Below are positions 11,406 through 34,462 of a stretch of DNA of 64,000 nucleotides, piece after piece; position 1 is the first letter of the stretch; every line of letters starts with the position of its first letter. A program made the position numbers and the translations under genes. The stretch spans positions 186,001 through 250,000 of the forward strand of contig CALSPM010000005.1 of assembly GCA_943788235.1 (NCBI GenBank), given 5' to 3'. The notes beneath the pieces are model-generated. The model made no database searches and was not told where the DNA came from. It saw nothing but the letters and a program-made list of their open reading frames with translations. This stretch comes from an uncultured Cyclobacteriaceae bacterium (lineage in GTDB: Bacteria; Bacteroidota; Bacteroidia; Cytophagales; Cyclobacteriaceae).

Positions 11406-11438
11406 GGGAACTGGGCTGCATTGGGTCAGCTTGGATCG

Positions 11439-19532: not shown

Positions 19533-20056
19533 TTTATTTTATTAATTAAGACCAATTAAAAAATTAATTATCTAAAATCTCCTTTATCAATTTATATAAA
19601 ATATGGGAGAGGATAAAATATGAGCCCATTAGATTTCAATTTCTTCCACATAATAGCAGCTACTTTTTTGTAAAATAATTTATATATCAATGCCCAAAGG
19701 AGAGCTATTCGAAACTTTCTAATTGAAAGAAATACATTCTATACATAGATTAAACCGTCAATATCGAGTGCCTGGCTAACTTCATTAAAATTGATTGGAT
19801 TTGGCGTAAGGCGATAAACAAAGAATAAATCTCTAGATTAATGGACTTCTTGCCCGCTTATTTCATTAGGTTTCATCAATCTTTTATTGTGACCAAAAAT
19901 TTTGTGACGCCATTTAATCCTAAAACGGAAGCCTGAGTATGCTTGATGAGGCCCTTCCCATCAGCAGATCACTTTAAAATAGAGTCCTAAAAGGACTACA
20001 ATATATTAAATTAAATTACTAGTTATCAGTATTTTATATAAATTTTTTAATTTATA
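19533..20056. other. AT-rich intergenic region left of the island
   Basis: About 520 bp without a gene. A 6-bp stem-loop AGTCCT-aaa-AGGACT lies at 19983-19997. Otherwise it is AT-rich DNA leading to the left island repeat. Confidence 0.4.
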
Positions 20057-20078
20057 CTGTCGTTATAGCTGTCGTAAA
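20057..20078. repeat. Putative attachment site, left copy (22-bp direct repeat)
   Basis: The sequence is CTGTCGT-TATAG-CTGTCGT-AAA, identical over all 22 bases to 32834-32855 and in the same orientation. The other copy lies against the tyrosine recombinase gene, the usual layout for attL/attR of an integrated element. Each copy has an internal repeat of CTGTCGT with 12-bp spacing, so the two copies could instead be binding sites for Int or Xis. Confidence 0.72.
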
Positions 20079-20285
20079 TTGTTTCAAATCCATATTTTAG
20101 AACTCCCAGTAGAATAAAACTATCAATTTTTACCATTTTTATACCTATTCGAAGTGATTTTTTCTCAGGAGAGACATTTCATTGTGTATTAACAAATTTT
20201 GCTACATCCAGTCTAAACAGATCTTTTTTGAGGTCATTTATTTTGGATAAAAGTAAATTTTTTAATTAAATGTTTAATAAATAAT

Positions 20286-20549
20286 ATGTTTACAACAACT
20301 TTAACTACCGAAGGATTCGAAACTCTCAAATATGAGATCAAGAAAGAATTAGCCTCAGAATTAAAAGATATATTATCCTCTCAAGAGGAAGTTTTAACAA
20401 GAGGTGAAGCAGCTCAATTTTTGAAAATATCAAAACCAACACTTGATAAATTAGTTGCCAAGAAAGAAGTCCCATTTATGATGTTAGGAGATCAAAAAAG
20501 GGTTATAAAATCAGATGTTTTAAACATAGGCAGATCGGATGCCTTATAG
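20286..20549 (+). CDS. Helix-turn-helix excisionase-like protein
   Basis: 87 residues. The C-terminal half is a MerR/excisionase-type winged helix: LTRGEAAQFLKISKPTLDKL, then VPFMMLGDQKRVIKSDVL. The N-terminal half is a charged helix. Proteins of this type control excision or copy functions of integrative elements. It lies 208 bp inside the left island repeat and 37 bp before the replication-protein gene, as in many Bacteroidota mobile elements. Confidence 0.78.
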   Translation: MFTTTLTTEGFETLKYEIKKELASELKDILSSQEEVLTRGEAAQFLKISKPTLDKLVAKKEVPFMMLGDQKRVIKSDVLNIGRSDAL

Positions 20550-20586
20550 TAATCAATACTACTTGACAATTTATATCAAATTATAG

Positions 20587-21528
20587 ATGTACGATAAATT
20601 ACACCTACACTATAATTATGATGATAACGGTTATCCTGATACTGATAAAATTATCTATAAGATCAGTGATGTTAACCACTCTGAATATGCTAACGGATCT
20701 ACATGTACTTCTGGATCTCTTGATAATTTAAGAGTTAATATTAATGAGATGTCTGTAACGATAAAAGGAAGTCTCGCTAAATACTATTTAGGAAATAACT
20801 TTCAAACTCTTTCACAAAAGACAACCTCAGAAGCCATTGAAAAGTTATCTGATGATTTAAATCTAGATATTAATCTCTGTAAAGTTTCAAGGATAGATTT
20901 ATCAACCAATTTCATTACTGATTTTAAACCTACTCTTTATTATGATTATCTAGATAGTTTAATGAGATTTCAAAGATTGGTACAACCTGATAGTCTTTAT
21001 TATCAACAAGGATCAAAGAGATTATTGTTCTATGATAAAACTAAATGGGCAAAGCAAATGCGAATAGAGATCCCTAAACAATTTGAAGATCAGAATATAC
21101 TCAGGTATGAGATGGTCTTAAACAAAGGAATCACTAAATATCTTAAACTGGATAAGATAACTATGCAAGATTTACATGGAGATTCTATGTACAGTAGGCT
21201 AGTTGAGGAGTGGTATAACTTCTACAACAGAATCGAGAAGAAATCAAGTAAAGAAATAGTGCTCAATACTCATAACATCAAATCTCCTAAAGACTTTGAT
21301 AAGGAACTCTTAGTTTATTTAGCGAGAACAAAAGGCTTTGATTACATAGATAACATGATTAAAGATCTCAAAGCGAGAAATGCTTTTACTAGTGATGAAT
21401 ACTATTCAAGGTTAAAGGCTAAATACAGAGATTATGCAAAGGTAGAGATTGATTCAGAAGACATCATATCAGAGATCAGTGAGAAGGGAGAGGAGGTATA
21501 TCAGAGAGAGTTTAATCCTCCTTTTTAA
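20587..21528 (+). CDS. Phage/plasmid replication initiation protein-like (gpII/CRI type)
   Basis: 313 residues. Resembles the phage/plasmid replication (gpII/X, CRI) proteins found in small Bacteroidota elements. Seen are MSVTIKGSLAKYYLGNNF, IEKLSDDLNLDI, KVSRIDLSTNF (the conserved Arg-Ile-Asp strand), QPDSLYYQQGSKRLLFYDK and NILRYEMVLNKGI. These proteins nick DNA to start rolling-circle replication. The assignment is by remembered pattern and the catalytic Tyr is not identified. It follows the excisionase-like gene by 37 bp, so the element may replicate after excision like a plasmid or filamentous-phage satellite. Confidence 0.62.
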   Translation: MYDKLHLHYNYDDNGYPDTDKIIYKISDVNHSEYANGSTCTSGSLDNLRVNINEMSVTIKGSLAKYYLGNNFQTLSQKTTSEAIEKLSDDLNLDINLCKVSRIDLSTNFITDFKPTLYYDYLDSLMRFQRLVQPDSLYYQQGSKRLLFYDKTKWAKQMRIEIPKQFEDQNILRYEMVLNKGITKYLKLDKITMQDLHGDSMYSRLVEEWYNFYNRIEKKSSKEIVLNTHNIKSPKDFDKELLVYLARTKGFDYIDNMIKDLKARNAFTSDEYYSRLKAKYRDYAKVEIDSEDIISEISEKGEEVYQREFNPPF

Positions 21529-21713
21529 ACTAGGTAGTAGTTCTTCTTTATCCTTAATTGAGTAGCTTAGAAGAGCTAATACAACCTCTCCATAGACAAG
21601 CTTTAAAGCTATTGTGAAGACGTATCAGGATAGAATTATAATTCTTATTTAGCGGGAAAGAGAATGCTTTATAGAGGCTTATATGAGCTCTATAGATAAT
21701 GATTTAACCCCTT

Positions 21714-21756
21714 CTACAAGGATGCCAAAGACTATGTTAGGAAGAACGATTTTAAG
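21714..21756. repeat. Fragment of dispersed island repeat 1
   Basis: 43 bp nearly identical to parts of 24436-24478 and 27996-28040 (core atgccaaagactatgtt). On the plus strand it can read YKDAKDYVRKNDFK; the differences between copies fall in whole codons, suggesting a formerly coding segment. The rest of 21529-21780 shows no gene. Confidence 0.6.
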
Positions 21757-21780
21757 AAAAAAAATTGTTGGAATTAGTAT

Positions 21781-22170
21781 TTACTTTTTTGAGAATTCTT
21801 TCATCTCATTTGAACCAAAGTACATATTGCTAATGAGCTCTACAGTTTCTTTCGTTATCGCTTCTGCCGAATTCATCTTTTTTAGCTGAAATTCAGTTTG
21901 ATCCATTGAGATCAATTTATTTTCCTCTTGATTAATGTGAATTTCTGTATACAAATGAAATCTTAATAGCTTTTCTAGGGTAATCTCAGTTCCAGGATAA
22001 TAGTTTTGAAATTCATCTAAATTTTTGAATGTCGTCTTTAAAATTCGATATGGTTTCTGAAAATTTAAATCATTTTTGAAACGCTGAGCTCTAAACACAT
22101 CAGAGGAGTCTTGCCCATAACAAATGGTTGAGGTTAGCATGATTGTTAGAGTGATCAGTATAATTTTCAT
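21781..22170 (-). CDS. Exported protein of unknown function
   Basis: 129 residues with a clear signal peptide (MKIILITLTIMLTSTICYGQ) and a charged mature part of ~110 residues (PYRILKTTF, PGTEITLEKLLRFHLYTEI). No family recognised. It is the first cargo gene after the replication gene, on the opposite strand. Confidence 0.6.
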   Translation of the reverse strand: MKIILITLTIMLTSTICYGQDSSDVFRAQRFKNDLNFQKPYRILKTTFKNLDEFQNYYPGTEITLEKLLRFHLYTEIHINQEENKLISMDQTEFQLKKMNSAEAITKETVELISNMYFGSNEMKEFSKK

Positions 22171-22276
22171 TTAATTTTATTCATCATTAATTTTTTGTTT
22201 GTCATGATTAAGTCTAAACATCAATTCTAATAAAAAAGTTGTCTTAATCAATTCCAAAGACTAGTTTATTTATTTC

Positions 22277-22512
22277 GTTATTCAAAACTAGCGGAAACTA
22301 ACCTTAGTGAATACTTTTCACCAGAAGGTATTGCTTTAGTCCAATTTAATTTTGTGTCATGGATTTGAGCTATGACAAAATCAAGCAGCTGTACAAGAAG
22401 AAAATGTACAAATTCTGTACAGGTGAGTATCAGTGTATTCAACTGGGGATGTATTTGCTGATATGAATTTGAAAGGGGAAGTTGCTCCATTAATGATTCG
22501 AAGTGTGAAGCT
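22277..22512. repeat. Dispersed island repeat 2, copy A
   Basis: About 236 bp of non-coding sequence clearly related to 28815-29042, both containing gtccaatttaattttgtgt-type and gaagcttgtgggag-type blocks. A short part (the end, SIxDxxCEACGS then stop on the plus strand) also recurs near 25938-25990. Frames are broken in every copy. A 70-codon minus-strand frame across it is not treated as a gene. Confidence 0.6.
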
Positions 22513-22624
22513 TGTGGGAGTTAGCAATGTTATTTTATATTTGATTGGAGTAAAACATTAATCATACGCAGATCAATCCAAACATCTGCACTTATTAAGT
22601 GAAGTACAATTAAATTCAGGAAAT

Positions 22625-23341
22625 ATGAATAATAAATTTTTACTACTTTCTTCTTTGTGTATTGTCATTCTGATATCCTCTTGTTCAAAAGATAATGATG
22701 ATATATTGCCAGAATTCATATTAAGTGAATATGAAATTGATGTTATAGATTATTTTAAAGATATCGCATTAGGTTTTGAGTTTGGAAATGGAAGTAATAT
22801 TACTCGAAAATGGAATTCAGAAATGAAAGTATTTATTGGTGGGGAACCAAGTTTTGAATTGTTGGCTGAATTCGAAAAAATTAGAACTGAAATTAATGAA
22901 TTAGTAACCGATGGTTTTAATGTGACAGTTGTGAATGATTCATTACAATCTAATTATTATATCTTTTTTGGCTCAGGTACTAAATATGCGGAAATGTTTC
23001 CAGATGTATCAAATTTAGTCAATTCCAATTGGGGACTATTTAATTTGTGGTGGAACGGTCAAAATCAATTTTATTCAGGCCATATGTATGTTGATATTAC
23101 AAGAGCTAATTCAATGGAACAAAAACATCTCTTGCGTGAGGAATTTACACAATCATTGGGACTTGCACGGGATTCACAATTATATATAGAAAGTATTTTT
23201 CAATCAGATTGGACAACTACAATAGAATATGCTTCTATCGATCAAGATTTAATTAGATTATTATATCATCCTGAAATGAGTGTTGGTCTAAATGAATTGG
23301 AGGTTGATAATGCTTTGAGAGAAATTTTAAGCAGTGAATAA
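22625..23341 (+). CDS. DUF2927-like lipoprotein
   Basis: 238 residues. Lipobox at ISSCSKDND. The mature part has an N-terminal ~100-residue alpha/beta segment and a C-terminal block QKHLLREEFTQSLGL, DSQLYIESIFQSD and DQDLIRLLYHPEM. This order (His-x-x-x-Glu-Glu, then 'DQ.LIRLLY.P..') resembles DUF2927 proteins, thought to be metallopeptidase-like. The HLLREE helix would be the metal site, but this is not proven. Cargo of the island. Confidence 0.6.
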   Translation: MNNKFLLLSSLCIVILISSCSKDNDDILPEFILSEYEIDVIDYFKDIALGFEFGNGSNITRKWNSEMKVFIGGEPSFELLAEFEKIRTEINELVTDGFNVTVVNDSLQSNYYIFFGSGTKYAEMFPDVSNLVNSNWGLFNLWWNGQNQFYSGHMYVDITRANSMEQKHLLREEFTQSLGLARDSQLYIESIFQSDWTTTIEYASIDQDLIRLLYHPEMSVGLNELEVDNALREILSSE

Positions 23342-23413
23342 AAAAGTGCCTAACAATGGCTAAAAAATCATAGCTACCCTTCATACCAATTGAACTTGAA
23401 AAATATTTTACAG

Positions 23414-23560
23414 CTAGTTAAAAAACTCCTCCAATATCATCTCTTTAGAGAAACACTCACAAGTGCTATCAATCTCCTTTAAAACGGCTGTATGCATGCC
23501 AGATTTGAATACTCCAACTCTATACTAATCCTTGGCGTGCTGTATTTAGCCATTCTAAGT
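23414..23560 (-). pseudogene. Remnant of the family seen at 26225-26607
   Basis: On the minus strand the readable part is YRVGVFKSGMHTAVLKEIDS, followed by TCECFSKEMILEEFFN and a stop. It matches the C-terminal half of the gene remnant at 26225-26607. A TAG lies just upstream and the N-terminal half is gone. Confidence 0.6.
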
Positions 23561-23730
23561 TCTCGCTCCAGAACAAAGGTACTAACTAGGTAATTCCATC
23601 AAATAGCTAATCGCCACCACCACTCCTTGCTTTTTTTAAATTCGTTAATATTTTTCTTCATTTCTAATATTTAATTGTCTTCTCCATTAATAGAATCAAT
23701 AAGATTAATGTTATAAAAAGATTAGCTCCT

Positions 23731-23790
23731 GAAGAGAAAAAGGAAAAGAAAAAGGAAAAGAAAAAGGAAAAGAAGAAGGCTACAAAAAGG
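23731..23790 (+). repeat. Lys/Glu-coding tandem repeat
   Basis: A 12-bp unit (gaaaaaggaaaa) is repeated about three times. In one plus-strand frame it reads APEEKKEKKKEKKKEKKK before ATKRNF and a stop. No start codon is available, so it looks like the tail of a lost gene or a simple-sequence tract. Confidence 0.5.
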
Positions 23791-23814
23791 AATTTTTAAA
23801 ACTTGAAATTACTT

Positions 23815-24228
23815 CTAATATTTTATCTTTTTTTTAAGCCCAGCTTGCATTCTTTCGTTTTCTTTTCTCGTTATACGTAGAAGATCAGCCCCTGTGAGTC
23901 CTACTATCTTAGCAGCAAAATTTAATGTGGTCTCCTCTGCTTCTTCGATTATACCATCGGCAAGAATAATCTTAACCATTGCATTAATTAAATCTTCTTT
24001 GAATTGCACATCACAACCAGCAAAAGATTTTGGCATTTCCTTTGACATAATCTCAGTCAATTTTTCAGAAGCGAGTAAATCCGAGAATATCTGTTGATTG
24101 GACATAACATTAAACTGTGCGAAGAATGGGTCTTCAGAAATGACTTTAATTTCAGCATCTTCAGCTCGATAAAACATGCTTGTCTCAAGTTTTCGATCTG
24201 ATTTGACCATGTATACCAAGCAATACAT
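23815..24228 (-). CDS. TerB-like domain protein
   Basis: 137 residues. The C-terminal half contains LINAMVKIILADGIIEEAEE, followed by TTLNFAAKIVGLT. This 'ADG.....E...' helix pair is the metal-binding hallmark of the TerB/tellurite-resistance-like fold. No signal peptide. An internal ATG at 24210 could be the true start. Function is unknown and no ter genes are nearby. Confidence 0.5.
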   Translation of the reverse strand: MYCLVYMVKSDRKLETSMFYRAEDAEIKVISEDPFFAQFNVMSNQQIFSDLLASEKLTEIMSKEMPKSFAGCDVQFKEDLINAMVKIILADGIIEEAEETTLNFAAKIVGLTGADLLRITRKENERMQAGLKKKIKY

Positions 24229-24311
24229 GAAACAGCTTCAGCAAGAGTAAAATTCCGTTGTTTTGATGTTTTTTGAAGATCATAGTTTTAATTAGTTCGT
24301 ATTAAACCTTA

Positions 24312-24531
24312 AAACTAATAAAATTTTGCAACCCTTCGTGAATTATTTTCATCCGAAGGGATTGCTCCAAAGGCTTTGACAGGAGAATCTAGTGGTAGAA
24401 AATCAAGAAAGAGGAAGGTGTTTTACTAACCTATTACCAAGATGCCAAAGACTATGTTGGAAGGAACGATTTTAAGGGTGAGAAATAGGCTTATTCTGTA
24501 CAGTTAGTGAAATTAGGTTTGGGTTCTGTCC
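24312..24531. repeat. Dispersed island repeat 1, copy A
   Basis: About 220 bp matching 27857-28087 closely, differing mainly by scattered substitutions and a short indel. Each copy lies directly downstream of, and overlaps the last codons of, a DUF285 lipoprotein gene. On the plus strand a broken frame reads FSSEGIA, GESSGRKSRK, YYQDAKDYVGRNDFKGEK. The shared block thus spans gene end plus 3' flank, so the two DUF285 genes duplicated together with flanking DNA. Confidence 0.7.
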
Positions 24532-25369
24532 AAGCAGCTGAATTTGCACTGAAATCATTACAAAAAGTAACCTTATCTACGTCCCAAGCGCTGAGATCTT
24601 GATTGAAAGAGGAAGCACTAGCCAACATATCACCCATATCCGTTACCTCGCTCACATCCCAATGACTGATGTCTTGGTTGAAAGAGGAATTATAATAAAA
24701 CATAACTCTCATGTTTTTCACATTACTAATATCCCAATGGGAGATGTCTTGGTTAAAATTAGAACTTGGAAACATATAACTCATATCTGTAATAAAAGAG
24801 GTAATGATTTTGGTAACATCTAAACTATCATTGATCATTTGATACAGCATGGTACTATCCACAATTAAATAACTAACTCCATCTAATACATAACGTTCAC
24901 CAATCACGGCATTTTCACTTGCTTTAATAGTAACCCCATTTTCGTCTAGGTAAATTTCATAAGAATCAGAACACCCATTCTCATCTACCATGGCATCACT
25001 TACTGTTTCCGCACAATTATCTACACTATCTCCAACTCCATCTCCATCAGCATCTTGAATCTCAAAGTTTGCTATTACCGTTTGATTGGTTAGCATGGTT
25101 AATGTCACAGAATTAGAACTCCCTGTAAAATCACCTGTCCAACCTGTGAAGGTATAATCAACATTAGCTGTGGCTGTAAGCTCAACAGTTGTACCTGCAT
25201 CATATGTACCCCCTTGTGGAGAAACTGAACCACCACTACTTGGGAAGATTGTGATGATTAATGTTGGTTTTGAAGTAATCGCATCATCACTGTCTTCACC
25301 ACAATTGGTGAATAACACGAGTGAACAAAGGATGCATAAGCGGAGGAGGAGGTGTTTGAAGATTTTCAT
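24491..25369 (-). CDS. BspA-like DUF285 surface lipoprotein
   Basis: 292 residues. Signal peptide with lipobox (LVLFTNCGED). Residues ~32-95 form a divergent InlB/Flg_new-type repeat (SSGGSVSPQGGTYDAGTTVE, FTGWTGDF). Residues ~100-125 form a thrombospondin type-3 Ca-binding repeat (DADGDGVGDSVDNC). Then come DUF285 units of ~25 residues (FNQDISHWDVSEVTDM) ending EPKPNFTNCTE. Such proteins are displayed on the surface and mediate adhesion or binding; no enzyme motif is seen. Paralogue of 28054-28794. Confidence 0.85.
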   Translation of the reverse strand: MKIFKHLLLRLCILCSLVLFTNCGEDSDDAITSKPTLIITIFPSSGGSVSPQGGTYDAGTTVELTATANVDYTFTGWTGDFTGSSNSVTLTMLTNQTVIANFEIQDADGDGVGDSVDNCAETVSDAMVDENGCSDSYEIYLDENGVTIKASENAVIGERYVLDGVSYLIVDSTMLYQMINDSLDVTKIITSFITDMSYMFPSSNFNQDISHWDISNVKNMRVMFYYNSSFNQDISHWDVSEVTDMGDMLASASSFNQDLSAWDVDKVTFCNDFSANSAAWTEPKPNFTNCTE

Positions 25370-25530
25370 AGTTTAATCTCAATAGCATTCATCGATGTCG
25401 GAGTCCACCCATATTTGTAAATCAGATTTCGTTTAATAAGTATTTCTATCTGGGTCAAAGTTATCCCTATTTAAAATGTTAAACTTTTTTTATTAACTTA
25501 GTAATTAGTTAAGAACTTTAATATACAACC

Positions 25531-25896
25531 ATGAATTTAAAAACTGTTTTTCGAATTGGTGCAATAATCTTGTTAATAAATGGTCTTGGAGCCTTATTTG
25601 CCACTAATATGTTTATGGAGGCTGGAAATTTTACTATGTCTCCAGCTTTATTCACCATAGGTCAATTTATGGGAGTTACTTTCTTGATTTTGGCATTAAT
25701 TGGATGGAGAACTGCTGACTTAGCAAAAGATGCTCTACCAGCTTTTGGTCAATTGTATGCAATAACACAAGGAATGTGGACTGCTATCATTGGCTACCAT
25801 ATAGCAATCGGTGCCACTGGTGGACCGACCGCATATGTTAATATAGGTCTAACTGCTTTATTAGGCATTTTATTCTTTTTTTACAGTAAAAAGTAA
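25531..25896 (+). CDS. Small four-helix membrane protein, unknown
   Basis: 121 residues with four hydrophobic helices: VFRIGAIILLINGLGALFA, then ALFTIGQFMGVTFLILALIGW, QLYAITQGMWTAIIGYHIAI and IGLTALLGILFFFYSKK. It lacks the sequence marks of DoxX, although the size and helix count are similar. No family assigned. It lies divergently from the DUF285 gene on its left (161 bp between starts). Confidence 0.68.
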   Translation: MNLKTVFRIGAIILLINGLGALFATNMFMEAGNFTMSPALFTIGQFMGVTFLILALIGWRTADLAKDALPAFGQLYAITQGMWTAIIGYHIAIGATGGPTAYVNIGLTALLGILFFFYSKK

Positions 25897-26224
25897 ATTT
25901 AACTTGTAATATCTATGGGTTATAAAAAAAACTCCTGGGACATTATACCCCAGAAGGAATTAGCTCCATTGATGATACTGATTGTGAAGCCTGTGGGTCA
26001 TAAAAAAGGGCAGTCAAAACAGAAAGAGAGAAGCCTACTTATCATGCCCTTAAAAATCAATTTAAAAACAAACCTTATATGAAAGGTTGAAATTGATAAG
26101 GAAGTATCATTTTCCACCTAAAATCCTCATAAATAATGTTAAAATAGCTTCTTAAACAATGTTAAAAAAAGCATCTAATAAACCGTACTAAAAGAGTTAT
26201 CCTATAAATCAAACAGTATCACTC
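25897..26224. other. Gap with a fragment of island repeat 2
   Basis: Near 25936-25990 the plus strand reads HYTPEGISSIDDTDCEACGS and a stop, matching the end of repeat 2 (22277-22512 and 28815-29042). CTGGG and CCCAG around 25936-25954 can pair. The rest is AT-rich with no gene visible. Confidence 0.5.
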
Positions 26225-26607
26225 TCACCTCAACACCCTATGAAATACCTCCCTTTCTAACACCTCAAAATAAGCTTCAAATTCCTTCAATATCACCTCC
26301 CTAGAGGAACTCACAAGTACTATTTATCTCCTTTAAAACGGCCGTATGCATCCCAGATTTGAGTATTCCAACTCTGTAATAATCCTTAGCCTTATCACTT
26401 ACTTTTAGCTTACCATGCGCTCGCCTCTTGTGTGTCCCTTTGACTAGGATAAAGTCATGATCTCCCTGAATGATAAAGCTTGAATTTTCCAGTTCTTCCA
26501 TAGCGAGAATGACCATACTACCGTAGGGATTAAGACCAGATCTATGCTTTAGTCCAATATCATTAGCGATATCATTATCATAGTTAATTTTATCTCCAGC
26601 TATCTAA
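26225..26607 (-). pseudogene. Decayed gene of unknown family (frameshifted)
   Basis: A frame without a start reads DKINYDNDIANDIGLKHRSG, then MVILAMEELENSSFIIQGDH and VGILKSGMHTAVLKEINST. After one frameshift near 26310 it continues SREVILKEFEAYFEVLEREV to a stop. The restored C-terminus aligns with the remnant at 23414-23560. A part starting from an internal ATG (26301-26516) is still open but is probably not functional. Confidence 0.6.
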
Positions 26608-26621
26608 TTTAATAAATGTGC

Positions 26622-27735
26622 TTATTTGATAAAGACAGAGTGAATAACTGAGGGATATTTTTCTTTGTTCTCTAAATAGGTCAGTTGGCCATCAACCCAA
26701 AGGGCAGCAACTTGTGAATGTTGTGAAAAGCTTGCCCATCCCCCAACAATTATTTGTTCCTCATGAATAGCGATATCTCTTCCCTCGCCTACCCAATAAT
26801 TATCAAATACAGGACCCCCTGGCAAATCAAATATTTCCCCATTTTTCCAGTAATGAGGCGTTATACCAGGCTCTCCTTCTTTTGGATTCCCATCGGGATC
26901 TACAGTTCCAATATGTTGAATATTCCCTGTTACATAAATATCATTACCATCGGCATAGCCACTGATTCCCTCACCTCCATAAATATTTTGTCGCCACGTA
27001 CCTCCATTATTACAATCAGTCCTTTTGCCGTTAATCCAATAAGATGCTTTTGGCAAAAGACCAACCATATTGTTTGACCGCATTGTCATGCCAAAAAAAA
27101 CAGCAGTATTATTTTTCAATTTAACATCGTAAATTTCTGCATCACCATCATGTGGTTTACTCATATTTTTTCTGCTCGTACCATTCCATCTTGCAGGGAT
27201 TAAAGAATGATGATTATTCATGTAATAGCCTCCTGTAACAACCTTACCATCATCAGTCACTACAATCCCAAACGCTTCAGAATCAGCATTAGTAGTAAGG
27301 TTTATTTTTGAACCATTTTTCCAATAACAAGAGCCATTAGCAAAACTACCCGCAACGTATACGTCGTCGTTATGGACAAATATTGAATGAGCAGATGTCT
27401 CGTTTCCCTGTAAAACAGTTTTAACTCCATCAACCCAGTAAACCGCTTGCCAGCTCTCATCTGTTCCAGTAGCGTAAACAGTACCATCTTTAACATGGAT
27501 GTCGGTGATTTCTCCCTCGCCGAGAATAAATCGATCTCCGTTTAACCAATAAGTTGCATATTGTATACCATTTGGATATCCCTCAATGTAATATCCAGCA
27601 GCATATATATTAACACCATTAATTATTAAGTCATCCGTGATGCTGTAATTTTTACATGAAATCAATGACATCAATACACCTAAAAGGATAAATGATAAAT
27701 GATAATATGTTTAAAATTTTCTCAGTATTATTCAT
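26622..27735 (-). CDS. YWxNG-repeat lipoprotein, currently out of frame in its signal peptide
   Basis: The main frame (stop at 26622, open to ~27710) encodes ~350 residues with at least seven beta-propeller-like units that include a Tyr/Leu-Trp-x-x-Gly turn (YWLNGDRFIL, YWVDGVKTVL, YWKNGSKINL, YWINGKRTDC, YWKNGEIFDL, LWVDGQLTYL). In this frame only MMSLISCKN precedes the mature part, too short for export. The nearest good start, ATG at 27735, reads MNNTEKILNILSFI and then runs out of frame at a tandem GATAAAT duplication (27687-27700). Removing one 7-bp unit gives an unbroken lipoprotein signal peptide, LNILSFILLGVLMSLISC. Either phase-OFF or freshly mutated. Function unknown. Confidence 0.72.
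27687..27700. repeat. 7-bp tandem duplication GATAAAT x2 in signal-peptide coding region
   Basis: Two perfect copies of GATAAAT followed by a partial third (GATAAT). One copy fewer restores the frame of the lipoprotein gene 26622-27735 exactly. It is a possible slipped-strand mispairing site. Confidence 0.8.
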
Positions 27736-27856
27736 GTTTTGATATATGAATTGCGAAAGTTAAAATACGAAATTACAAGACATATTTAACCCCATTTTGG
27801 GGCTTCGGTAATTTGCTTGGCATTTTTGAAAATACTATCTGATTTAATTTCACAGT

Positions 27857-28087
27857 TAAACTAATAAAATTTTTCCACTCTCAGTAAATTATTCTCATCC
27901 GAAGAAGACATTCCTAGTTATAAAAACTTAATGAAGGCTTTAACAGGAGAATCAAGCGGTAAAAAATTAAGAAAGAGGAAGATGTTTTACTAACCTATAC
28001 TTTGATGCCAAAGACTATGTTGAAAGGAACGATTTTAAGGGTGAGAAATAGGCTTATTCCGTACAATTAGTGAAGTTAGGTTTGGGT
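27857..28087. repeat. Dispersed island repeat 1, copy B
   Basis: Counterpart of 24312-24531, located at the end of the second DUF285 gene. It carries an extra short segment (attcctagttataaaaac) compared with copy A. The plus-strand broken frame reads GESSGKKLRKRKMFY and, in another frame, DAKDYVERNDFKGEK. The adjoining 27736-27856 shows no gene. Confidence 0.7.
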
Positions 28088-28794
28088 AAAATCCATTTTT
28101 CAGCATTTATGCTGAATTTATTACAGTCAATCACATTACTTACACCCCAAGAACTGAGATCTTGATTAAACGAAGTAGTACCTGCGAACATTCCTCCCAT
28201 CTTAATGACGTTACTGACATTCCAATCACTTATATTTTGATTAAAAGAAGGACAGTTTGCAAATGTACCACTCATATCTGTGACATTGATAACCTCCCAA
28301 TGACTGATATCTTGGTTAAAAGAAGGTAAATCAATAAAAGCATCAATCATTGAATTCACATTAAATACATCCCAAGAGCCAATATCTTGATTGAAATTAA
28401 CTCCGTAGCTCCACGAGAGATTCCAACTTGGAGAACTATTAAATAAATTGTTCAAGGAGGTTATATGCGTGGTAACTACTTTAGTGATATCTTCCTCATT
28501 GGTTATCATTTCAATGAGAATAGTTGAATCTACTACTAGATAGGAAATCCCATCCAATTCATACTTCTCTCCGATTACTGCTACGTCAGAAGCTCTAATT
28601 GTAACACCATTTTCTGTTAAGAATATAGCTGACTCCGTAGCTCCATCACTACTATTGTCGATATCTCTACTATCTTCATCATATGTAGTATTCGTGATGT
28701 CATCAGAAACAGGGTCATCACTATCACTGCAATGGGTAAACAAGACAATTGAATCAAGAATATTTAAGAAGAGGAGGTATTTGAAGTGCTTCAT
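28054..28794 (-). CDS. BspA-like DUF285 surface lipoprotein
   Basis: 246 residues with a signal peptide whose lipobox is LFTHCSDSDD. A short acidic linker is followed by ENGVTIRASDVAVIGEKYEL (shared with the paralogue at 24491) and DUF285 units (FNQDIGSWDVFNVNSM, FNQDISHWEVINVTDM, FNQNISDWNVSNVIKM, FNQDLSSWGVSNVIDC), ending PKPNFTNCTE. It lacks the Flg_new and thrombospondin repeats of its paralogue. Probable surface binding protein. Confidence 0.83.
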   Translation of the reverse strand: MKHFKYLLFLNILDSIVLFTHCSDSDDPVSDDITNTTYDEDSRDIDNSSDGATESAIFLTENGVTIRASDVAVIGEKYELDGISYLVVDSTILIEMITNEEDITKVVTTHITSLNNLFNSSPSWNLSWSYGVNFNQDIGSWDVFNVNSMIDAFIDLPSFNQDISHWEVINVTDMSGTFANCPSFNQNISDWNVSNVIKMGGMFAGTTSFNQDLSSWGVSNVIDCNKFSINAEKWILPKPNFTNCTE

Positions 28795-28814
28795 TGTATT
28801 ATCAAAAGTACTAA

Positions 28815-29042
28815 AACTTCTCTACCCTAAGTGAATTTCTTTCATCCGAAAGTACTGTTATAATCCAATTTAATTTTGTGTAATGGATTTGAGCTACCAT
28901 GAAATCAAGAAGTCATATAAGGAGAAGAGAGTATAAATTCTCTGTAGGTGCCTATCAGTGGATTCAACTGGTCATGTGTTTGCCGATATGAATTTAAAAA
29001 GGGGCTGTTCCATTGATGACTACTTTTGTAAAGCTTGTGGGA
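28815..29042. repeat. Dispersed island repeat 2, copy B
   Basis: Related to 22277-22512 over its whole length, with many substitutions and small indels. The plus-strand text ends SIDDYFCKACGS and a stop. It sits between the DUF285 and DUF2200 genes. Confidence 0.6.
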
Positions 29043-29075
29043 GCTGAATTAAGTTTGATATCTCTCAATCTATTT

Positions 29076-29450
29076 TTACTTTCCTACTCGCAATATCTTT
29101 TCCATTTTACGACCTCTTGCCAATTCATCAATCATCTTTTCCATACGTCTACATTGTTTATATAGTTCAAATTCATCCTCTATTTCTTCAATTCGATAAC
29201 CACAAACGACCCCTTTAATTAAGTGTGCATTAGGATGTATTTTAGCTTTTTGAAAAAATGTTCTAAAAGGTACTTTTTCTTCAACGAGTGCTTCTAACTC
29301 ATCGTTATCAAAACCAGTTAACCATTTTATTACTTGATTAAGTTCTTCTTTGGTTCTTCCATTCTTCTCCAACCTATTTAAGTAAAGTGGATAAATGGAT
29401 GCGAATATCATATTACCGACTTTTTCTTCTTTTTCAGCTGTGACTTTCAT
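29076..29450 (-). CDS. DUF2200 family protein
   Basis: 124 residues, soluble, no signal peptide. MIFASIYPLYLNRLEKNGRTKEE followed by VIKWLTGF, FFQKAKIHPNAHLIKGVVCGYRIEEIED and MRRMEKMIDEL-type helix are the full DUF2200 pattern; length is normal. Function of the family is unknown. The IS3 element starts 85 bp upstream of its start codon. Confidence 0.85.
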   Translation of the reverse strand: MKVTAEKEEKVGNMIFASIYPLYLNRLEKNGRTKEELNQVIKWLTGFDNDELEALVEEKVPFRTFFQKAKIHPNAHLIKGVVCGYRIEEIEDEFELYKQCRRMEKMIDELARGRKMEKILRVGK

Positions 29451-29591
29451 TTTTTTATTAGATCATATTTTCCCAAGGATGGGTACGATTAGATGATACA
29501 AGCGAATTCTATTGTCTTTTGAATTTTTTAATGGTGTATGTCGTCAAATAAAAGTGGACTTTTTCAGATATAAATTAAGCGAGTGTTGATA

Positions 29592-30560
29592 CTAATTTAA
29601 ATAATTAATTTGATTCTGCTTTTTTCGTTCAATTAAAGTTTGTTGTTTGATTTTTTCCCTATGCCTAAGTTTTCGTTCTCCAGTTCCATAATAGACCTCA
29701 GAAGGAGTAAGGTTATTGATGGACTCATGGTATCTTTCATAGTTGTAATACTGAACAAATTGCTTCATTTTAGACTCTAGCTGCCCTGGGCTGTAATAAT
29801 TATCCAGTTTCACTACATTTTTCATTGATCTGTGATATCGTTCAATTTTACCCTGAGTTTGTGGATGAAGCGGTCGACCTCGTACATGTTTCATGTTTCG
29901 ATCATTTAAATATTCTGCTAATTCAATAGATAGGTAACACGATCCATTATCAGATAGTAACTTTAGAGGAGCATGGGTTTGTGCGACTAATAAAGCCTCA
30001 TCCAAGGTCTGTTTTACATCCTCTGCCTTCATAGTGGCACATAACTTCCAGTTGACAATAAAACGACTGTAATCATCCAATATGGTTGATAAGTAATACC
30101 ATCCCCATCCAACTATTTTAAAATAGGTGAAGTCTGTTTGCCACATCTGATTTACTGAAGTGGTTTTATCTTGAAAACTATCAGAGGCACTCATAATCCT
30201 GAATGAAGGAGTTGTGATAAGACCATTGAGCTTTAATATCCTATACACACTCGACTCACTGATATAATAACTGTATTTATCTATGATATGCCATGCCAGC
30301 TCTCTAGATGATAACTCAGGGCGTTCTAAAGCAATCTCAACCACTTTATCTCTGTCAGCTAAGTTGATCTTATTCCAAACTTCTTTCCTATTACCAGACC
30401 TTCGAGCCAATCCATCATATCCATGCTGTTGGTAGCCATTATACCATTTGTAAAAGGTAGTTTTATTCACTTTTAGTTGCCTGAGAGTTCTGATAACACC
30501 AAGATCACTTTGCTCTACAAGACGGATGATCTCCATCTTTTCGTTTTGACTGTAATGCAT
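29592..30560 (-). CDS. IS3-family transposase OrfB (DDE integrase)
   Basis: 322 residues. N-terminal helix-turn-helix (MEIIRLVEQSDLGVIRTLRQ, KTTFYKWYNGY), then the HTH_21/rve region. The DDE core is visible: Asp in WQTDFTYFKI, Asp in LLSDNGSCYLS, and Glu in QTQGKIERYHRSMKN. Ends with YYNYERYHESINNLTPSEVYYG. All three acidic residues are intact. It starts 14 bp after the orfA stop in another frame; programmed frameshifting may join them. Confidence 0.92.
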   Translation of the reverse strand: MHYSQNEKMEIIRLVEQSDLGVIRTLRQLKVNKTTFYKWYNGYQQHGYDGLARRSGNRKEVWNKINLADRDKVVEIALERPELSSRELAWHIIDKYSYYISESSVYRILKLNGLITTPSFRIMSASDSFQDKTTSVNQMWQTDFTYFKIVGWGWYYLSTILDDYSRFIVNWKLCATMKAEDVKQTLDEALLVAQTHAPLKLLSDNGSCYLSIELAEYLNDRNMKHVRGRPLHPQTQGKIERYHRSMKNVVKLDNYYSPGQLESKMKQFVQYYNYERYHESINNLTPSEVYYGTGERKLRHREKIKQQTLIERKKQNQINYLN

Positions 30561-30574
30561 GTACTTCTTCCTCT

Positions 30575-30922
30575 TTACTCGGGTGAGCCAATGTTTTTTT
30601 TCAAGTCTCTCACTTCTAGTGAAAGATCTGCCACAAGTTCCTTTAAAGAGGCGTTCTCCCCTTTTAATTCTTGAACCTCTGAGGTATTGGCTTCTCGCAT
30701 GGTATCACCATTTAACCTGTGCTTGCCAGCTTCCATGAAATCCTTACTCCACTTGTAATAGTTTGCTTGATGAATGCCTTCCCTACGACAGAGTTCAGCA
30801 ATACTCAACTCACCTCGAATACCCTCAATTACAATTCTGATCTTTTCTTCTGAATTATATGCCTTGCGTGTCTTCCTTTTTAGTTCACTTATTAATGAAC
30901 TTGCATTTCTCTTCTTTCCCAT
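30575..30922 (-). CDS. IS3-family transposase OrfA
   Basis: 115 residues. Helix-turn-helix RKAYNSEEKIRIVIEGIRGE and SIAELCRREGIHQANYYKW, followed by a leucine-zipper-like coiled coil (VQELKGENASLKELVADLSL). DNA-binding partner of OrfB. Confidence 0.9.
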   Translation of the reverse strand: MGKKRNASSLISELKRKTRKAYNSEEKIRIVIEGIRGELSIAELCRREGIHQANYYKWSKDFMEAGKHRLNGDTMREANTSEVQELKGENASLKELVADLSLEVRDLKKNIGSPE

Positions 30923-31065
30923 TGTAGTTAAATTTAAGTGTTTACTCTGTTTAAAACACGCTCTTATAATTTAACCCTTATTAGTTCACTTTTTGCTGAC
31001 GGTATACAATCAGCAATAGTGGGGTTATTCTTTATAATATTACTCTTTACTTTAAAATAAATAAA

Positions 31066-31545
31066 ATGAAATATTCAATTTTCTTTCTGTTTATTCTGAT
31101 CGCAGTATGTGTATTTGCTCAAAATTCAGAATATCAAGTTTCCTCATATTCGACAGAAGGAACAAGAGCTCCAAATACCCACTACATAGGAGAAGCTTGG
31201 TTGAATGCCATTATTCACGATGATAAAGAATTAGGATATAACATCACAAAAGCAACCTTTAAAGCGAATTCGACATTAGACTGGCATAAACATAGTTCCG
31301 CACAGGTCTTAATAATTTTAGAGGGAGAAGCATATTATCAGGAGAGAGGAAATGAGTCTGTAATTTTACAAAAAGGGGATGTAATTAAATGTGAGAAAGA
31401 TATCGAACATTGGCATTCCGCAACCAAAGTTAGTGATGTCACCTATTTGGCTTTATATGGTGGTGGACAACCGACAACTTGGACTGAAGTTTTAAAACAA
31501 GAATATTATGATAACGTAGCCGAAAGTTTCATTTCACGGAAGTAA
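31066..31545 (+). CDS. Exported cupin-domain protein
   Basis: 159 residues. Signal peptide (FFLFILIAVCVFAQ). Single cupin barrel with WHKHSSAQVLIILEGEAYYQ (motif 1, two His plus Glu) and GDVIKCEKDIEHWHSA (motif 2 with metal-binding His). Similar to periplasmic cupins related to mandelonitrile-lyase or quercetinase types; the substrate is unknown. Last cargo gene, between the IS and the integrase. Confidence 0.82.
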   Translation: MKYSIFFLFILIAVCVFAQNSEYQVSSYSTEGTRAPNTHYIGEAWLNAIIHDDKELGYNITKATFKANSTLDWHKHSSAQVLIILEGEAYYQERGNESVILQKGDVIKCEKDIEHWHSATKVSDVTYLALYGGGQPTTWTEVLKQEYYDNVAESFISRK

Positions 31546-31628
31546 TCCACTGCATTAAAAAAGCAAAAATCTGTAGCGTTAAGACCATGGGTTTACCTGA
31601 CGATTGACCGCTCGGCTTGATGCATGAT

Positions 31629-32819
31629 TTACCTCCTCATCTTATTCGCAATCTCCTCAATATCTGCTCCTGCATAATGCTTGATGATTGTCTCAGGAGA
31701 AGTACCTGTGATCTTGGATACTTCGGTGGCACTTAGATTTAATGTATTGATAGCATAGGAATGAAAAGTTTTCCTAGCGGTATGGGAGGTACATACCTCA
31801 TGTAAGAGAGCAGCGTTTTCGCTTTTAATGATCCGATCAAACTTGAGTTCTTTTAGAAATGTTTTGATGGCTTTATTGTACTTCTGCTCAGCGATAAATG
31901 GAAGCTTAAAATTATATTTTTCCAGTATATTAAATGCCTCAGGAAGAATGGGAATATTAATTTTTTCATCTGTTTTATAGGCTCTAGTTTTGATAAATCT
32001 TCGATCTTCACTTACCATGTGTATGGTAAATCTATTTAGATCGCTGATTCTAAAACCTGTATAACATTGAAAGATAAATATATCTTTTTGCTCCTGTAGT
32101 TTTTTGGATTTTGGATTTGATTTCCGTAGTCGCTTGAGCTCCGCTTCAGAAATATAAAATATGGACTTATTAGAATTAGACCTTGCAAAGGAGAATACGG
32201 CTTCGTTGACTTCGATATCTAGTTCTTTAAGTTTAGCGCAAAGACTTTTAAGATATCTAATTTGATTACCAATGGTGCTTGTTGCTTTACCTTGATCGGT
32301 TAAAAATTTTTTGAAGTCAAGCTCAAATTTTTTATTTAGATCCAAAAGCTTATGGTCTTTCTTTCTGAGTGTATTGTAAGTAGTAATGTTATACCTTAGG
32401 TTATTATCATAATTTTTTATGGTTGACTCGCTCAGTTCATTTCTATATTTTGAAATCATTACATCAATACCTTCGATAATAGTTTGAACTTCCGATTGGC
32501 TATGGATGCGTTCATAAATCCTTTTGACAGTATTTGGATGAAGGTCACCTAATTTTTTCGCATCGTATATGATCTCTAAGATATGGCTATACTGCTCGTT
32601 TAAATCTTTATTTACTGAATGGTGACCTATATACTTTTTATTTAATGGTTTGGTGTTGTTGATCTTTTTTCGACCTTGATTCGTTATCCAGTTCAGTTGA
32701 TTTGACTCAACTGTCGTTTTAGTCGAGAATAAAACTTTAAGTCCATTATGGTCATATCGAAGATATAGTACATTATTGAGTCTATTTTGATGTTTTTGAA
32801 TAAAAAAGTTAAGTGTCAT
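31629..32819 (-). CDS. Tyrosine recombinase (integrase)
   Basis: 396 residues from MTLNFFIQKHQ; the frame runs further upstream through the attachment repeat to 32885, but that part lacks the family pattern. An N-terminal Arm-binding domain and a SAM-like core domain precede the catalytic domain with CYTGFRISDL (Arg), HTARKTFHSYAINTL (His-x-x-Arg) and TGTSPETIIKHYAG (Tyr nucleophile). Bacteroidota mobile-element type. Its start lies 15 bp from the right 22-bp repeat, so it probably integrates the 12.8-kb island. Confidence 0.92.
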   Translation of the reverse strand: MTLNFFIQKHQNRLNNVLYLRYDHNGLKVLFSTKTTVESNQLNWITNQGRKKINNTKPLNKKYIGHHSVNKDLNEQYSHILEIIYDAKKLGDLHPNTVKRIYERIHSQSEVQTIIEGIDVMISKYRNELSESTIKNYDNNLRYNITTYNTLRKKDHKLLDLNKKFELDFKKFLTDQGKATSTIGNQIRYLKSLCAKLKELDIEVNEAVFSFARSNSNKSIFYISEAELKRLRKSNPKSKKLQEQKDIFIFQCYTGFRISDLNRFTIHMVSEDRRFIKTRAYKTDEKINIPILPEAFNILEKYNFKLPFIAEQKYNKAIKTFLKELKFDRIIKSENAALLHEVCTSHTARKTFHSYAINTLNLSATEVSKITGTSPETIIKHYAGADIEEIANKMRR

Positions 32820-32833
32820 GTGCTTTAAAATAG

Positions 32834-32855
32834 CTGTCGTTATAGCTGTCGTAAA
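32834..32855. repeat. Putative attachment site, right copy (22-bp direct repeat)
   Basis: Identical to 20057-20078 over 22 bases, same orientation. It lies 15 bp upstream of the integrase start codon. Right boundary of the island. Confidence 0.72.
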
Positions 32856-33082
32856 ATAGTGATAAATGGGGTAAAATACAAACAAAGGGTTTTTTAAATA
32901 TTCCTTTAAAGGTAAATTAAAGTCATTTTATGATAAATATGATAAAATACTAATAGTCTTAACGGGACTTCTTTAGCCATATTCCCCTTCGATCATACAA
33001 TTTTGGGCATTTGTTGTCTATATTATTTGTTTCTCCTTCGTTTTTTTGAATAAATTAGTAAAGCTTTAAACCAAAAAAATCA

Positions 33083-34462
33083 ATGATGATTTTTAAATTT
33101 ATAAAATCCTCCGTTTTATTAATTACAATAGGTATGATTATCCTAGCCTGTCAAAAGCAACCCGAAGTGCCTTGGATATCTTTATTTGATTCCAAAACTT
33201 TGAATGGTTGGACGCAAAAAGGGGGCGAGGCGCTTTATGAAGTACGCGAGGGTGCGATTGTGGGCATCACTGTCAACCACAGCCCAAATTCTTTTCTTAC
33301 CACTAAAAAAATGTTTGATGATTTCATCTTAGAACTTGAATTTAAGATAGACTCCAGCATGAATTCTGGGATTCAAATCAGAAGTAATAGTGATGTCCAT
33401 TACCTCAATGGCCGGGTGCATGGCTATCAAATTGAGATAGATCCATCCGAACGTTCTTGGAGTGCTGGCATCTATGATGAAGCACGACGCGGGTGGTTGC
33501 ATCCATTAACTGATGAGAATGTGATTGCCAAAAAAGCCTTTAAACAAAATGATTGGAATCATTACCGGATCGAAGCCCTGGGAGATACATTAAAGACTTG
33601 GATTAATGAAATTCCGGCGGCACATTTGATTGATGACCAAACTTCTAGAGGGTTTATAGCTTTACAAGTTCATTCCATCTCTGGAGATCAAAAAGAGGGC
33701 ACTGAGATCGCTTGGAAGAACCTTCGTATACTGACCCAGGATTTACAAAAATATGCCCAAAAGAGTCCGCTTCCTACCTTAACCAAAAAGAATCGTTTGA
33801 CTTCCAATGAGCTTGAAGAGGGTTGGACTCTGCTTTGGGATGGCCTGACGACTGAAGGTTGGGTGGGAGCCAAATTAAAAGGATTTCCCAATAAGGGCTG
33901 GACCATAGAAGATGGTGAACTGACTGTATTATCAACGGGAGGCAAAGAATCTGAAGAAGGAGGTGATATTGTGACCCTTCAGCAGTATGCAGATTTTGAG
34001 TTGATGCTTGATTTTAAGTTGACTCGAGGGGCTAATAGTGGCATCAAATATTATGTGGATACTACAATAAATAAAGGTTCAGGTTCGGCCATTGGTTTAG
34101 AATATCAAATTCTAGATGATGAAAGACATCCTGATGCAAAGGAAGGAAATCATGAAGGCAGCCGGACACTGGCTTCGCTTTACGATCTAGTTCAAGCAGA
34201 TCCTAACAAACCTACCAAGCCTATTGGTGAATGGAACACTGCTCACATTATCTCGAAGAATAATCAGGTGGTACATTACCTCAATGGAGCTAAAGTACTC
34301 ACCTATGATCGTAAAAGTAGGGGCCACAGAAAACTTGTGATGGCCAGCAAATATGCCAAATGGCCCAACTTTGGCGAGTTGGAACGAGGTCATATTTTAT
34401 TACAAGATCATGGCGATCGTGTAAGTTTCAGAAATATTAAAATTAAATCCCCTCTCAAATGA
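33083..34462 (+). CDS. Lipoprotein with two DUF1080 (3-keto-disaccharide hydrolase) domains
   Basis: 459 residues. Lipobox IILACQKQ. Two LamG-like DUF1080 domains: first (~30-215) WISLFDSKTLNGWTQKGGEA, FKIDSSMNSGIQIRS; second (~225-455) GWTLLWDGLTTEGWVGAKLK, DFKLTRGANSGIKYYVD. DUF1080 proteins have been linked to cleavage of 3-keto-glycosides. Its TGA overlaps the ATG of a Gfo/Idh oxidoreductase (ATGA), an arrangement in which the oxidoreductase would form or reduce the 3-keto sugar. That partner is frameshifted here. Confidence 0.86.
   Translation: MMIFKFIKSSVLLITIGMIILACQKQPEVPWISLFDSKTLNGWTQKGGEALYEVREGAIVGITVNHSPNSFLTTKKMFDDFILELEFKIDSSMNSGIQIRSNSDVHYLNGRVHGYQIEIDPSERSWSAGIYDEARRGWLHPLTDENVIAKKAFKQNDWNHYRIEALGDTLKTWINEIPAAHLIDDQTSRGFIALQVHSISGDQKEGTEIAWKNLRILTQDLQKYAQKSPLPTLTKKNRLTSNELEEGWTLLWDGLTTEGWVGAKLKGFPNKGWTIEDGELTVLSTGGKESEEGGDIVTLQQYADFELMLDFKLTRGANSGIKYYVDTTINKGSGSAIGLEYQILDDERHPDAKEGNHEGSRTLASLYDLVQADPNKPTKPIGEWNTAHIISKNNQVVHYLNGAKVLTYDRKSRGHRKLVMASKYAKWPNFGELERGHILLQDHGDRVSFRNIKIKSPLK

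What the first reader, a model, noticed from the sequence alone, without database searches (positions are those of the whole stretch)
20057..32855. 12.8-kb xis-rep-int island bounded by a 22-bp direct repeat
Seen: two identical 22-bp repeats in the same orientation. The left one lies 208 bp before an excisionase-like gene and a phage/plasmid-type replication gene; the right one lies 15 bp from a complete tyrosine recombinase. Between them is cargo of exported and lipoprotein genes unlike the flanking core genes, plus an IS3 element. Known: tyrosine-recombinase elements are bounded by attL/attR. Inference: this is an integrated element that may excise and replicate as a circle, carrying surface-protein cargo instead of phage structural or conjugation genes. 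The site is not in a tRNA, and each repeat has an inner CTGTCGT duplication.
Basis: partly seen in the sequence, partly recalled or inferred. Interest (0 to 1): 0.75.

Follow-up and report, generated by a model that had tools for sequence, protein, structure and literature searches.

The report
Relocated mobile island with mis-placed ends
A 13-kb stretch of a marine Bacteroidota genome is an inserted mobile element with its own cutting, excision and copying genes; the repeats that seem to mark its ends lie inside it, and its closest relatives sit at a tRNA gene whereas this copy has landed somewhere else.

Summary
The 22-bp repeats are real and identical; their 18-bp core occurs twice in the genome. 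Excisionase, G2P/Phage_CRI replication gene and tyrosine recombinase are intact. In one same-genus genome the flanking genes lie about 625 bp apart. A free two-piece alignment to that empty site joins window 19999|32971 (score 373; 130 for a join at the repeats). There lie two similar cores, AGTCCTAAAAGGACT and AGTCTTAACGGGACT. The first runs on into the last bases of tRNA-Glu, where ends of this element type sit in four related genomes (xis seen in three), each with a diverged copy of the repeat 44-57 bp inside. So the element is about 19988-32964 at a non-tRNA site; each 22-bp repeat is a tandem pair of sites inside it, most likely Int arm sites. Four other elements show tandem repeats inside cores at both ends; three did not resolve. 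Cargo (PARCEL lipoproteins, secreted proteins, an IS3) is threaded on repeats that recur, mostly co-oriented, across the genus. Excision and replication are inferred. In passing: a sibling element sits inside a CRISPR repeat.

The parts
19983..19997 (+). attL core AGTCC-TAAAA-GGACT; continues as ACAAT, i.e. GGACTACAAT (19993-20002) as at the 3' end of tRNA-Glu in G003
32955..32969 (+). attR core AGTCT-TAACG-GGACT, 12 of 15 identical to attL at the offset (12972) of the best empty-site join
19988..32964 (.). the integrated element, about 12.97 kb; the alignment alone fixes the ends to about 20 bp, the cores narrow it
20003..20052 (+). decayed counterpart of the terminator-like hairpin between tRNA-Glu and repeat in relatives (-21.3 to -23.8 kcal/mol in 3 of 3 folded, -2.1 here)
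20057..20078 (+). left 22-bp repeat: two CTGTCGT units at 12-bp pitch, proposed Int arm-type pair, 59 bp inside the core
32834..32855 (+). right 22-bp repeat, identical, 99 bp inside the core and 14 bp before int
20286..20549 (+). xis, HTH_17/excisionase family; dN/dS 0.24 against G003
20587..21528 (+). rep, G2P/Phage_CRI-type rolling-circle initiator; dN/dS 0.30 against G005
31629..32819 (-). int, 396-aa tyrosine recombinase; R, K, HTAR and Y visible, usual second His is Thr (TGTSPETIIKHY); residue roles recalled
21593..21756 (+). scaffold repeat R5, shortly after rep
22298..22525 (+). scaffold repeat R1-R3, copy 1
23420..23540 (+). scaffold repeat R2
24301..24495 (+). scaffold repeat R6 (R1-head plus R5-tail); second copy 27858-28058
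25956..26399 (+). scaffold repeat R3-R4-R2, contiguous with a 447-bp copy in G000:C4 at 86% identity
28822..29043 (+). scaffold repeat R1-R3, copy 2
21781..22170 (-). cargo: 129-aa protein with a signal-peptide-like start (by eye), no Pfam family
22625..23341 (+). cargo: DUF2927, lipoprotein-like start (by eye)
23815..24228 (-). cargo: TerB-like (just under Pfam cut-off)
24491..25369 (-). cargo: lipoprotein-like, PARCEL/DUF285 repeats
25531..25896 (+). cargo: 121-aa hydrophobic protein, no Pfam family
26622..27674 (-). cargo: 350-aa protein, no Pfam family above cut-off
28054..28794 (-). cargo: second PARCEL/DUF285 lipoprotein-like gene
29076..29450 (-). cargo: DUF2200
29535..31010 (-). IS3-type element, 99.7% identical to a copy in the own tRNA-Glu region
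31066..31545 (+). cargo: cupin with a signal-peptide-like start (by eye)

Best explanation
An integrative element of the int-xis-rep (G2P initiator) kind. Its recombinase makes the crossover at a degenerate core of about 15 bp (19983-19997 and 32955-32969), not at the 22-bp repeats. Each 22-bp repeat is two tandem units at a 12-bp pitch lying inside the element at either end; most likely these are the arm-type sites that Int (with Xis) binds to bridge core and arms. The closest relatives with a visible end are inserted at the 3' end of tRNA-Glu and carry a terminator-like hairpin next to it; this copy lies in a non-tRNA site with a core-like sequence and its hairpin has decayed. Shown: empty site and ends in one relative, tRNA-Glu relatives, repeat geometry, intact genes, purifying selection on xis and rep. 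Inferred: Int binding at the repeats, Xis-aided excision, rolling-circle copying of the circle by Rep, movement from tRNA-Glu to this site. Cargo of secreted and lipoprotein-like genes was gained as a piece of a genus-wide repeat-threaded array (inferred).
For: Empty site in G001: flanking genes 89% and 83% identical, about 625 bp apart; best join 19999|32971 scores 373 against 130 at the repeats. The cores agree 12 of 15 at the offset of that join (1.7e-4 of 132,775 flank pairs as good). Homology to the G003 element runs outward past the repeat to window 19993 and stops at the tRNA-Glu end. The repeat's diverged copy lies 44-57 bp inside tRNA-Glu in G003, G004, G005 and G007; within 5 mismatches the loci then held gave otherwise three isolated single places. 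G007 keeps repeat and xis but has an unrelated gene in the place of rep, so the repeat is not a Rep iteron. Tandem repeats inside cores at both ends in L012, L093, L105 and L107; gap at int end 110, 116, 117, about 148, at far end 41, 65, 54, 54, against 99 and 59 here. Hairpin in 3 of 3 relatives folded, lost here. dN/dS 0.23-0.30.
Against: One empty site only, in a draft genome, and its right side is diverged; joins from 19978 to 20021 on the left score 363 or more. The window cores are not identical. No tRNA-Glu relative shows its right end (contigs stop), and no full-length close relative of int was listed in the 9 other genus genomes, only fragments and distant recombinases, so that tRNA-Glu elements use an int of this kind is assumed. 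In G004 only the end sequence is seen, no xis. L106, L108 and L111 gave no shared end repeats. The second far-end unit of L093 has 2 mismatches (by eye). Arm-site function rests on geometry and recalled knowledge of lambda, CTnDOT and NBU1 integrases. No reads were available to show a circle. The changed His in int could mean low activity.
Confidence: 0.82

Rival explanations
1. The 22-bp repeats themselves are attL and attR: excision leaves one 22-bp copy.
For: Identical direct repeats, one next to int, one before xis.
Against: The join at the repeats scores 130 against 373; about 58 bp and 99 bp outside the repeats are absent from the empty site; a diverged copy lies inside the element end at tRNA-Glu in four relatives; four other elements have tandem repeats inside cores.
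Confidence: 0.06
2. A fossil: integrated once, now immobile, with the repeats kept by chance or recency.
For: Its relatives show decay: rep broken in G003, recombinase broken at the own tRNA-Glu, int relics or fragments in G000:C3, G001, G003, G009; no circle shown.
Against: int, xis and rep are all open here, the two 22-bp copies are identical, and xis and rep show dN/dS 0.23-0.30.
Confidence: 0.3
3. The 22-bp repeats are operators (repressor or Xis sites controlling int and xis) with no part in recombination geometry.
For: One copy lies 14 bp before int and the other 207 bp before xis.
Against: Gap to the core of like size in five elements at both ends although the repeat sequence differs; repeats of another sequence at a 12-bp pitch lie 44 bp from tRNA-Glu in G000, beside a different, broken recombinase, and in G006, where the contig ends there. 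An arm site may also act as an operator.
Confidence: 0.12
4. The stretch is ancestral and was deleted in G001, so there is no insertion.
For: Only one genome shows the short form.
Against: The left part of the same element is found at an unrelated locus (tRNA-Glu) in G003 and G005; the core is shared with that locus; the element is AT-richer than its immediate flanks (30-36% against 36-41% G+C).
Confidence: 0.03

Closest known systems
Actinomycete integrative elements with rolling-circle replication (AICEs, pSAM2; PMC3218068, passages seen)
   Same: int and RCR initiator, integration at tRNA 3' ends by tyrosine recombinases, copying of the excised circle
   Different: no FtsK/TraB-type transfer gene recognised here; initiator is Phage_CRI; that paper had PF05144 among its search profiles and reported only one further element, with a Rep2-type initiator, from the added families; phylum differs
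Integrative and mobilizable elements with RCR-type initiator/relaxase (PMC5704250, passages seen)
   Same: int plus an RCR-type protein that may serve copying and transfer
   Different: no coupling protein recognised, no oriT known, initiator of another family
Riemerella anatipestifer 10K genomic island (PMC6764341, passages seen)
   Same: Bacteroidota island of about 10 kb at a tRNA with an integrase, reported to excise
   Different: 53-bp perfect repeat reported as att; excision said not to need other island-encoded proteins; no xis or rep pointed out in the passages seen
NBU1 and CTnDOT (recalled, not read; the NBU1 paper is not held)
   Same: Bacteroidota tyrosine recombinases with core and arm sites, tolerance of mismatch in the overlap, tRNA target of NBU1
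   Different: those carry mob or tra genes; sequence relation of int not tested here
G2P-bearing int-xis-rep elements found here (L012, L093, L105, L107)
   Same: genes and end geometry; L012 also has the layout of the window, int at one end and xis-rep at the other
   Different: L093, L105 and L107 have int, xis and rep in a row; none of the four was seen with the repeat-threaded cargo (not searched for it); sequences differ widely

Membership tests
Tyrosine-recombinase integrative element | intact recombinase of the family | tested here: met
   catalytic residues read by eye, second His is Thr
Tyrosine-recombinase integrative element | core sequence at both ends and an uninterrupted site in a relative | tested here: met
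   one relative, cores 12 of 15 alike
Tyrosine-recombinase integrative element | excised circle | not testable with these tools
   no reads
AICE-like element | RCR initiator | tested here: met
   Phage_CRI; catalytic motifs not checked
AICE-like element | FtsK/TraB transfer gene | tested here: not met
   none in Pfam scans of the main ORFs
IME | relaxase or oriT used with a helper | tested here: inconclusive
   no canonical relaxase in Pfam scans; Rep could serve; oriT not tested
Filamentous prophage (Inoviridae) | Zot-type morphogenesis ATPase and coat genes | tested here: not met
   no such Pfam match; PHROGs run on six of the ORFs only
Integron | IntI integrase | tested here: not met
   NCBIfam scan of int lists no integron integrase model at E 0.1
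Integron | attC-like folding sites between cassettes | tested here: not met
   of five cargo-repeat stretches folded, four fold no better than shuffles, R1 has z -2.3; junction points vary
Strand-biased circularising element (SE) | two recombinase genes intA and intB | tested here: not met
   one recombinase among the ORFs scanned; definition from passages of PMC9345347

The most novel reading that the evidence does not exclude
The element is the mobile arm of a genus-wide cassette system: secreted-protein genes threaded on co-oriented repeats form arrays of tens of kb, probably at tRNA-Glu, and xis-rep-int elements pick up and carry away pieces of them to new sites, doing for surface proteins what integrons do for other genes but by another route (shared repeats instead of attC).
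Probability: 0.2. Interest if true: 0.78.

Novelty: new variant of a known kind. Interest (0 to 1): 0.52.

Why it matters
It shows how the usual rule, longest direct repeat beside int equals element end, can misplace boundaries: in this and four other elements the tandem repeats are inside the cores. It gives an exact, testable circle junction and empty site for a G2P-type integrative element in Bacteroidota and a likely case of an element off its tRNA target. The cargo links mobile elements with a large, variable stock of secreted and PARCEL proteins in a marine Bacteroidota genus.

Tried and rejected
Rep in genome contigs: one near relative, the G003 contig; in viral contigs none; GenBank phages none; plasmids one distant Parabacteroides hit; in relatives outside the genus two distant (G036 28%, G048 26%). 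Int in viral contigs: none. xis in viral contigs: one weak hit, L104, not followed up. Int at E 1e-30 in 390 genomes of the order: the own and two at 30-31%; weaker matches were not asked for. Rfam over 17000-36000: none. Integron reading of the cargo repeats: no IntI model, no attC-like folds in four of five, variable junctions. Iteron reading of the 22-bp repeat: rejected because G007 keeps repeat and xis with another gene in the place of rep. Search for a second CRISPR-targeting recombinase of that kind: 1 of 87 genomes of the order of G495, itself. Sibling replication or putative phage-like proteins in GenBank phages: none; in plasmids the Parabacteroides record again. L114 and L115, distant int relatives, were fetched and scanned: int profile hits, no rep. 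Structure prediction was not used. Literature: searches gave one or no paper; I make no claim that the kind is absent from print beyond these, of which I opened passages of five papers and saw the others as listings only.
Full report
Place and host. The window is G000:C5:186001-250000 of a 3.25-Mb draft genome in 14 contigs.

Observation. The 22-bp direct repeat is exact, twice in the window, and its first 18 bases occur only there in the genome within 2 mismatches. It is two CTGTCGT units at a 12-bp pitch. xis, rep and int are as described and open. Rep matches Phage_CRI (G2P; 48.6 bits, cut-off 21.7), positions 62-222 of 232; catalytic motifs were not checked. Int shows R, K, HTAR and Y of the family, with Thr where most have the second His (residue roles recalled).

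Ends. Of 10 genus genomes, the own included, only G001 besides the own has close orthologues of both flanking genes, as neighbours: sulfatase 89% and 3-keto-disaccharide hydrolase 83%, about 625 bp apart against 13.55 kb here. I aligned left flank and right flank to the G001 gap with a free join. The best join was window 19999|32971, score 373; joins from 19978 to 20021 on the left, with 32952 to 32989 on the right, score 363 or more, so the alignment alone fixes the ends to about 20 bp; a join at the repeats scores 130. At the offset of the best join (12972) the window holds AGTCCTAAAAGGACT (19983-19997) and AGTCTTAACGGGACT (32955-32969), 12 of 15 alike; 1.7e-4 of 132,775 flank pairs do as well. 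The left core has inverted arms AGTCC/GGACT around a 5-bp spacer; the right one is AGTCT/GGACT.

Relatives. Rep is found in 5 of 59 genomes searched as relatives, the own included; G003 (81%, broken) and G005 (74%, intact) have xis-rep at the 3' end of tRNA-Glu(ttc). DNA homology to G003 runs outward past the 22-bp repeat to window 19993, GGACTACAAT, where its tRNA-Glu ends. tRNA-Glu was found in 8 of 10 genus genomes, in one of them, G008, cut by the contig end. G003, G004, G005 and G007 carry a diverged 22-bp repeat 57, 57, 44 (assembly gap) and 57 bp from the tRNA; xis is seen in G003, G005 and G007, while the G004 contig stops before it; the G002 contig stops 22 bp after the tRNA in like sequence; the own genome and G006 carry another repeat pair of the same pitch, GCGTACACAAGAGCGTACACAA, 44 bp from the tRNA, in the own genome beside a different recombinase, broken there. 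Within 5 mismatches the 22-bp sequence was otherwise met at three isolated places in the loci held then: one in the window on the minus strand at the start of xis, one in L054, one in L073. Between tRNA and repeat the relatives have a strong hairpin with a T-run (G003 -23.8, G007 -21.3, G004 -22.6 kcal/mol; 0 of 200 shuffles as good in each), while the window counterpart folds at -2.1. This fits an element that left tRNA-Glu. G007 keeps repeat and xis (50%) but has an unrelated 440-aa protein in the place of rep with no Pfam match at E 0.1 or PHROG match at 0.01. Against the reading: no full-length close relative of int is listed in the 9 other genus genomes, so the recombinase of the tRNA-Glu elements is not known.

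Generality. Phage_CRI at E 1e-6 was found in 10 of 395 genomes of the class, 0 of 14 controls. I fetched all nine loci outside the own genome. With profiles built from five int, seven xis and five rep sequences, four of nine have int, xis and rep together (L105, L106, L107, L113), one int and rep (L111), one rep with a weak xis match (L108), three no rep hit (L109, L110, L112). L012, L013 and L093 served to build the profiles and are not counted; L012 and L093 have all three, L013 xis and rep near a tRNA-Arg. I looked for shared end repeats in seven: L012 (tRNA-Met), L093 (P. distasonis plasmid record, tRNA-Phe) and L105 have a 15-19-bp core outside and a tandem repeat of 11-bp pitch inside, at both ends (the second far-end unit of L093 has 2 mismatches, by eye); L107 has the like with a 7-bp core; L106, L108 and L111 gave nothing; L113 was not examined, its contig ends. 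Gaps from repeat to core: int end 99 (window), 110, 116, 117, about 148 (L107); far end 59 (window), 41, 65, 54, 54 (the L107 gaps are worked out from its positions). Arm-type binding by Int is the reading that best fits this near-constancy under changing sequence; it is inferred.

Selection. dN/dS of rep against G005 0.30, of xis against G003 0.24 and G005 0.23.

Cargo. Genes are separated by repeats R1-R7 in a set order. R1 alone has 29 matches in the genome, 17 of them in C4 and 16 of these within its first 43.6 kb, and 87 in 10 of 10 genus genomes. Of 39 neighbouring pairs within 20 kb, 35 are in the same orientation (sign test 3e-7, which treats pairs as independent). C4:1-45000 and G007:C40 hold arrays of this kind, largely genes with secreted or lipoprotein-like starts, alike at the far end and different in between (by eye); the own tRNA-Glu region (L063) has the same repeats and related cargo, closest for the DUF2200 gene (84% and 97% in two pieces), 46-76% for others. 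That C10 and C4 join there is a guess. Junction points between repeats and genes vary and four of five repeat stretches fold no better than shuffles, so an integron is not supported; serial insertion at tRNA-Glu with homologous exchange is my preferred guess. A piece of the tRNA-Glu recombinase type lies in the C4 array; no rep or xis relic was found in it by tblastn at E 0.05, which does not help that guess. PARCEL domains are described as spread by transfer and linked in some taxa to mobile elements (PMC2996958, passages).

Mechanism. Shown: insertion, ends, repeat geometry, intact genes. Inferred: Int binds both CTGTCGT pairs and the core, Xis favours excision, Rep nicks and copies the circle, Int places it at tRNA-Glu or, less strictly, at a core-like site such as this one. 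In the circle att would lie between int and xis, reading away from each other, as also in L012.

Verdict.

Noticed in passing
L107 (G495:C48), 8240-13926: An int-xis-rep element with a HigB-type toxin and an HTH gene beside it is integrated inside a CRISPR repeat: 13 intact 47-bp repeats on one side, 5 on the other, and one repeat split with a 7-bp TTGAAAG duplication; joining the halves restores the repeat exactly; cas1 and cas2 are adjacent. A CRISPR repeat serving as attachment site; one case, the same recombinase not found again in 87 genomes of that order.
   Followed up: partly
G000:C4:1-45000 (L075-L077), G007:C40 (L084-L086), G002:C20 (L087): Arrays of genes with secreted or lipoprotein-like starts threaded on mostly co-oriented repeats in set order, genus-wide.
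   Followed up: partly
L063 900-1842 (G000:C10), L065 (G006:C14): The own tRNA-Glu is occupied by another element with a broken recombinase and its own 12-bp-pitch repeat pair 44 bp from the tRNA; G006 has the same repeats at a contig end.
   Followed up: partly
L064 72-1743 (G007:C22): Like arm repeats and xis at tRNA-Glu, but the gene in the place of rep is an unrelated 440-aa protein without Pfam or PHROG family.
   Followed up: partly
L074 9329-9505 (G000:C3), L072 8340-8486 (G003:C9): C-terminal relics of a related int between the same two genes (by eye) in two genomes: an old shared insertion.
   Followed up: no
L106 and L111: Two int-rep elements start about 150 bp after a gene that looks like mnmE (named by eye), which suggests its 3' end as target.
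   Followed up: no
L093 9458-12839, L012 8460-10651: Sibling elements in P. distasonis and G036 carry small hydrophobic or phage-like genes (by eye) after rep; nothing above Pfam cut-offs, only weak PHROG matches for those of L093; no match of one L012 protein in GenBank phages. Possibly unrecognised ssDNA prophages.
   Followed up: partly
window 29535-31010, L063 9252-10727, G000:C4 11433-12763: IS3-type copies, 99.7% identical between island and tRNA-Glu region, with like ORFs in C4, point to recent movement.
   Followed up: no
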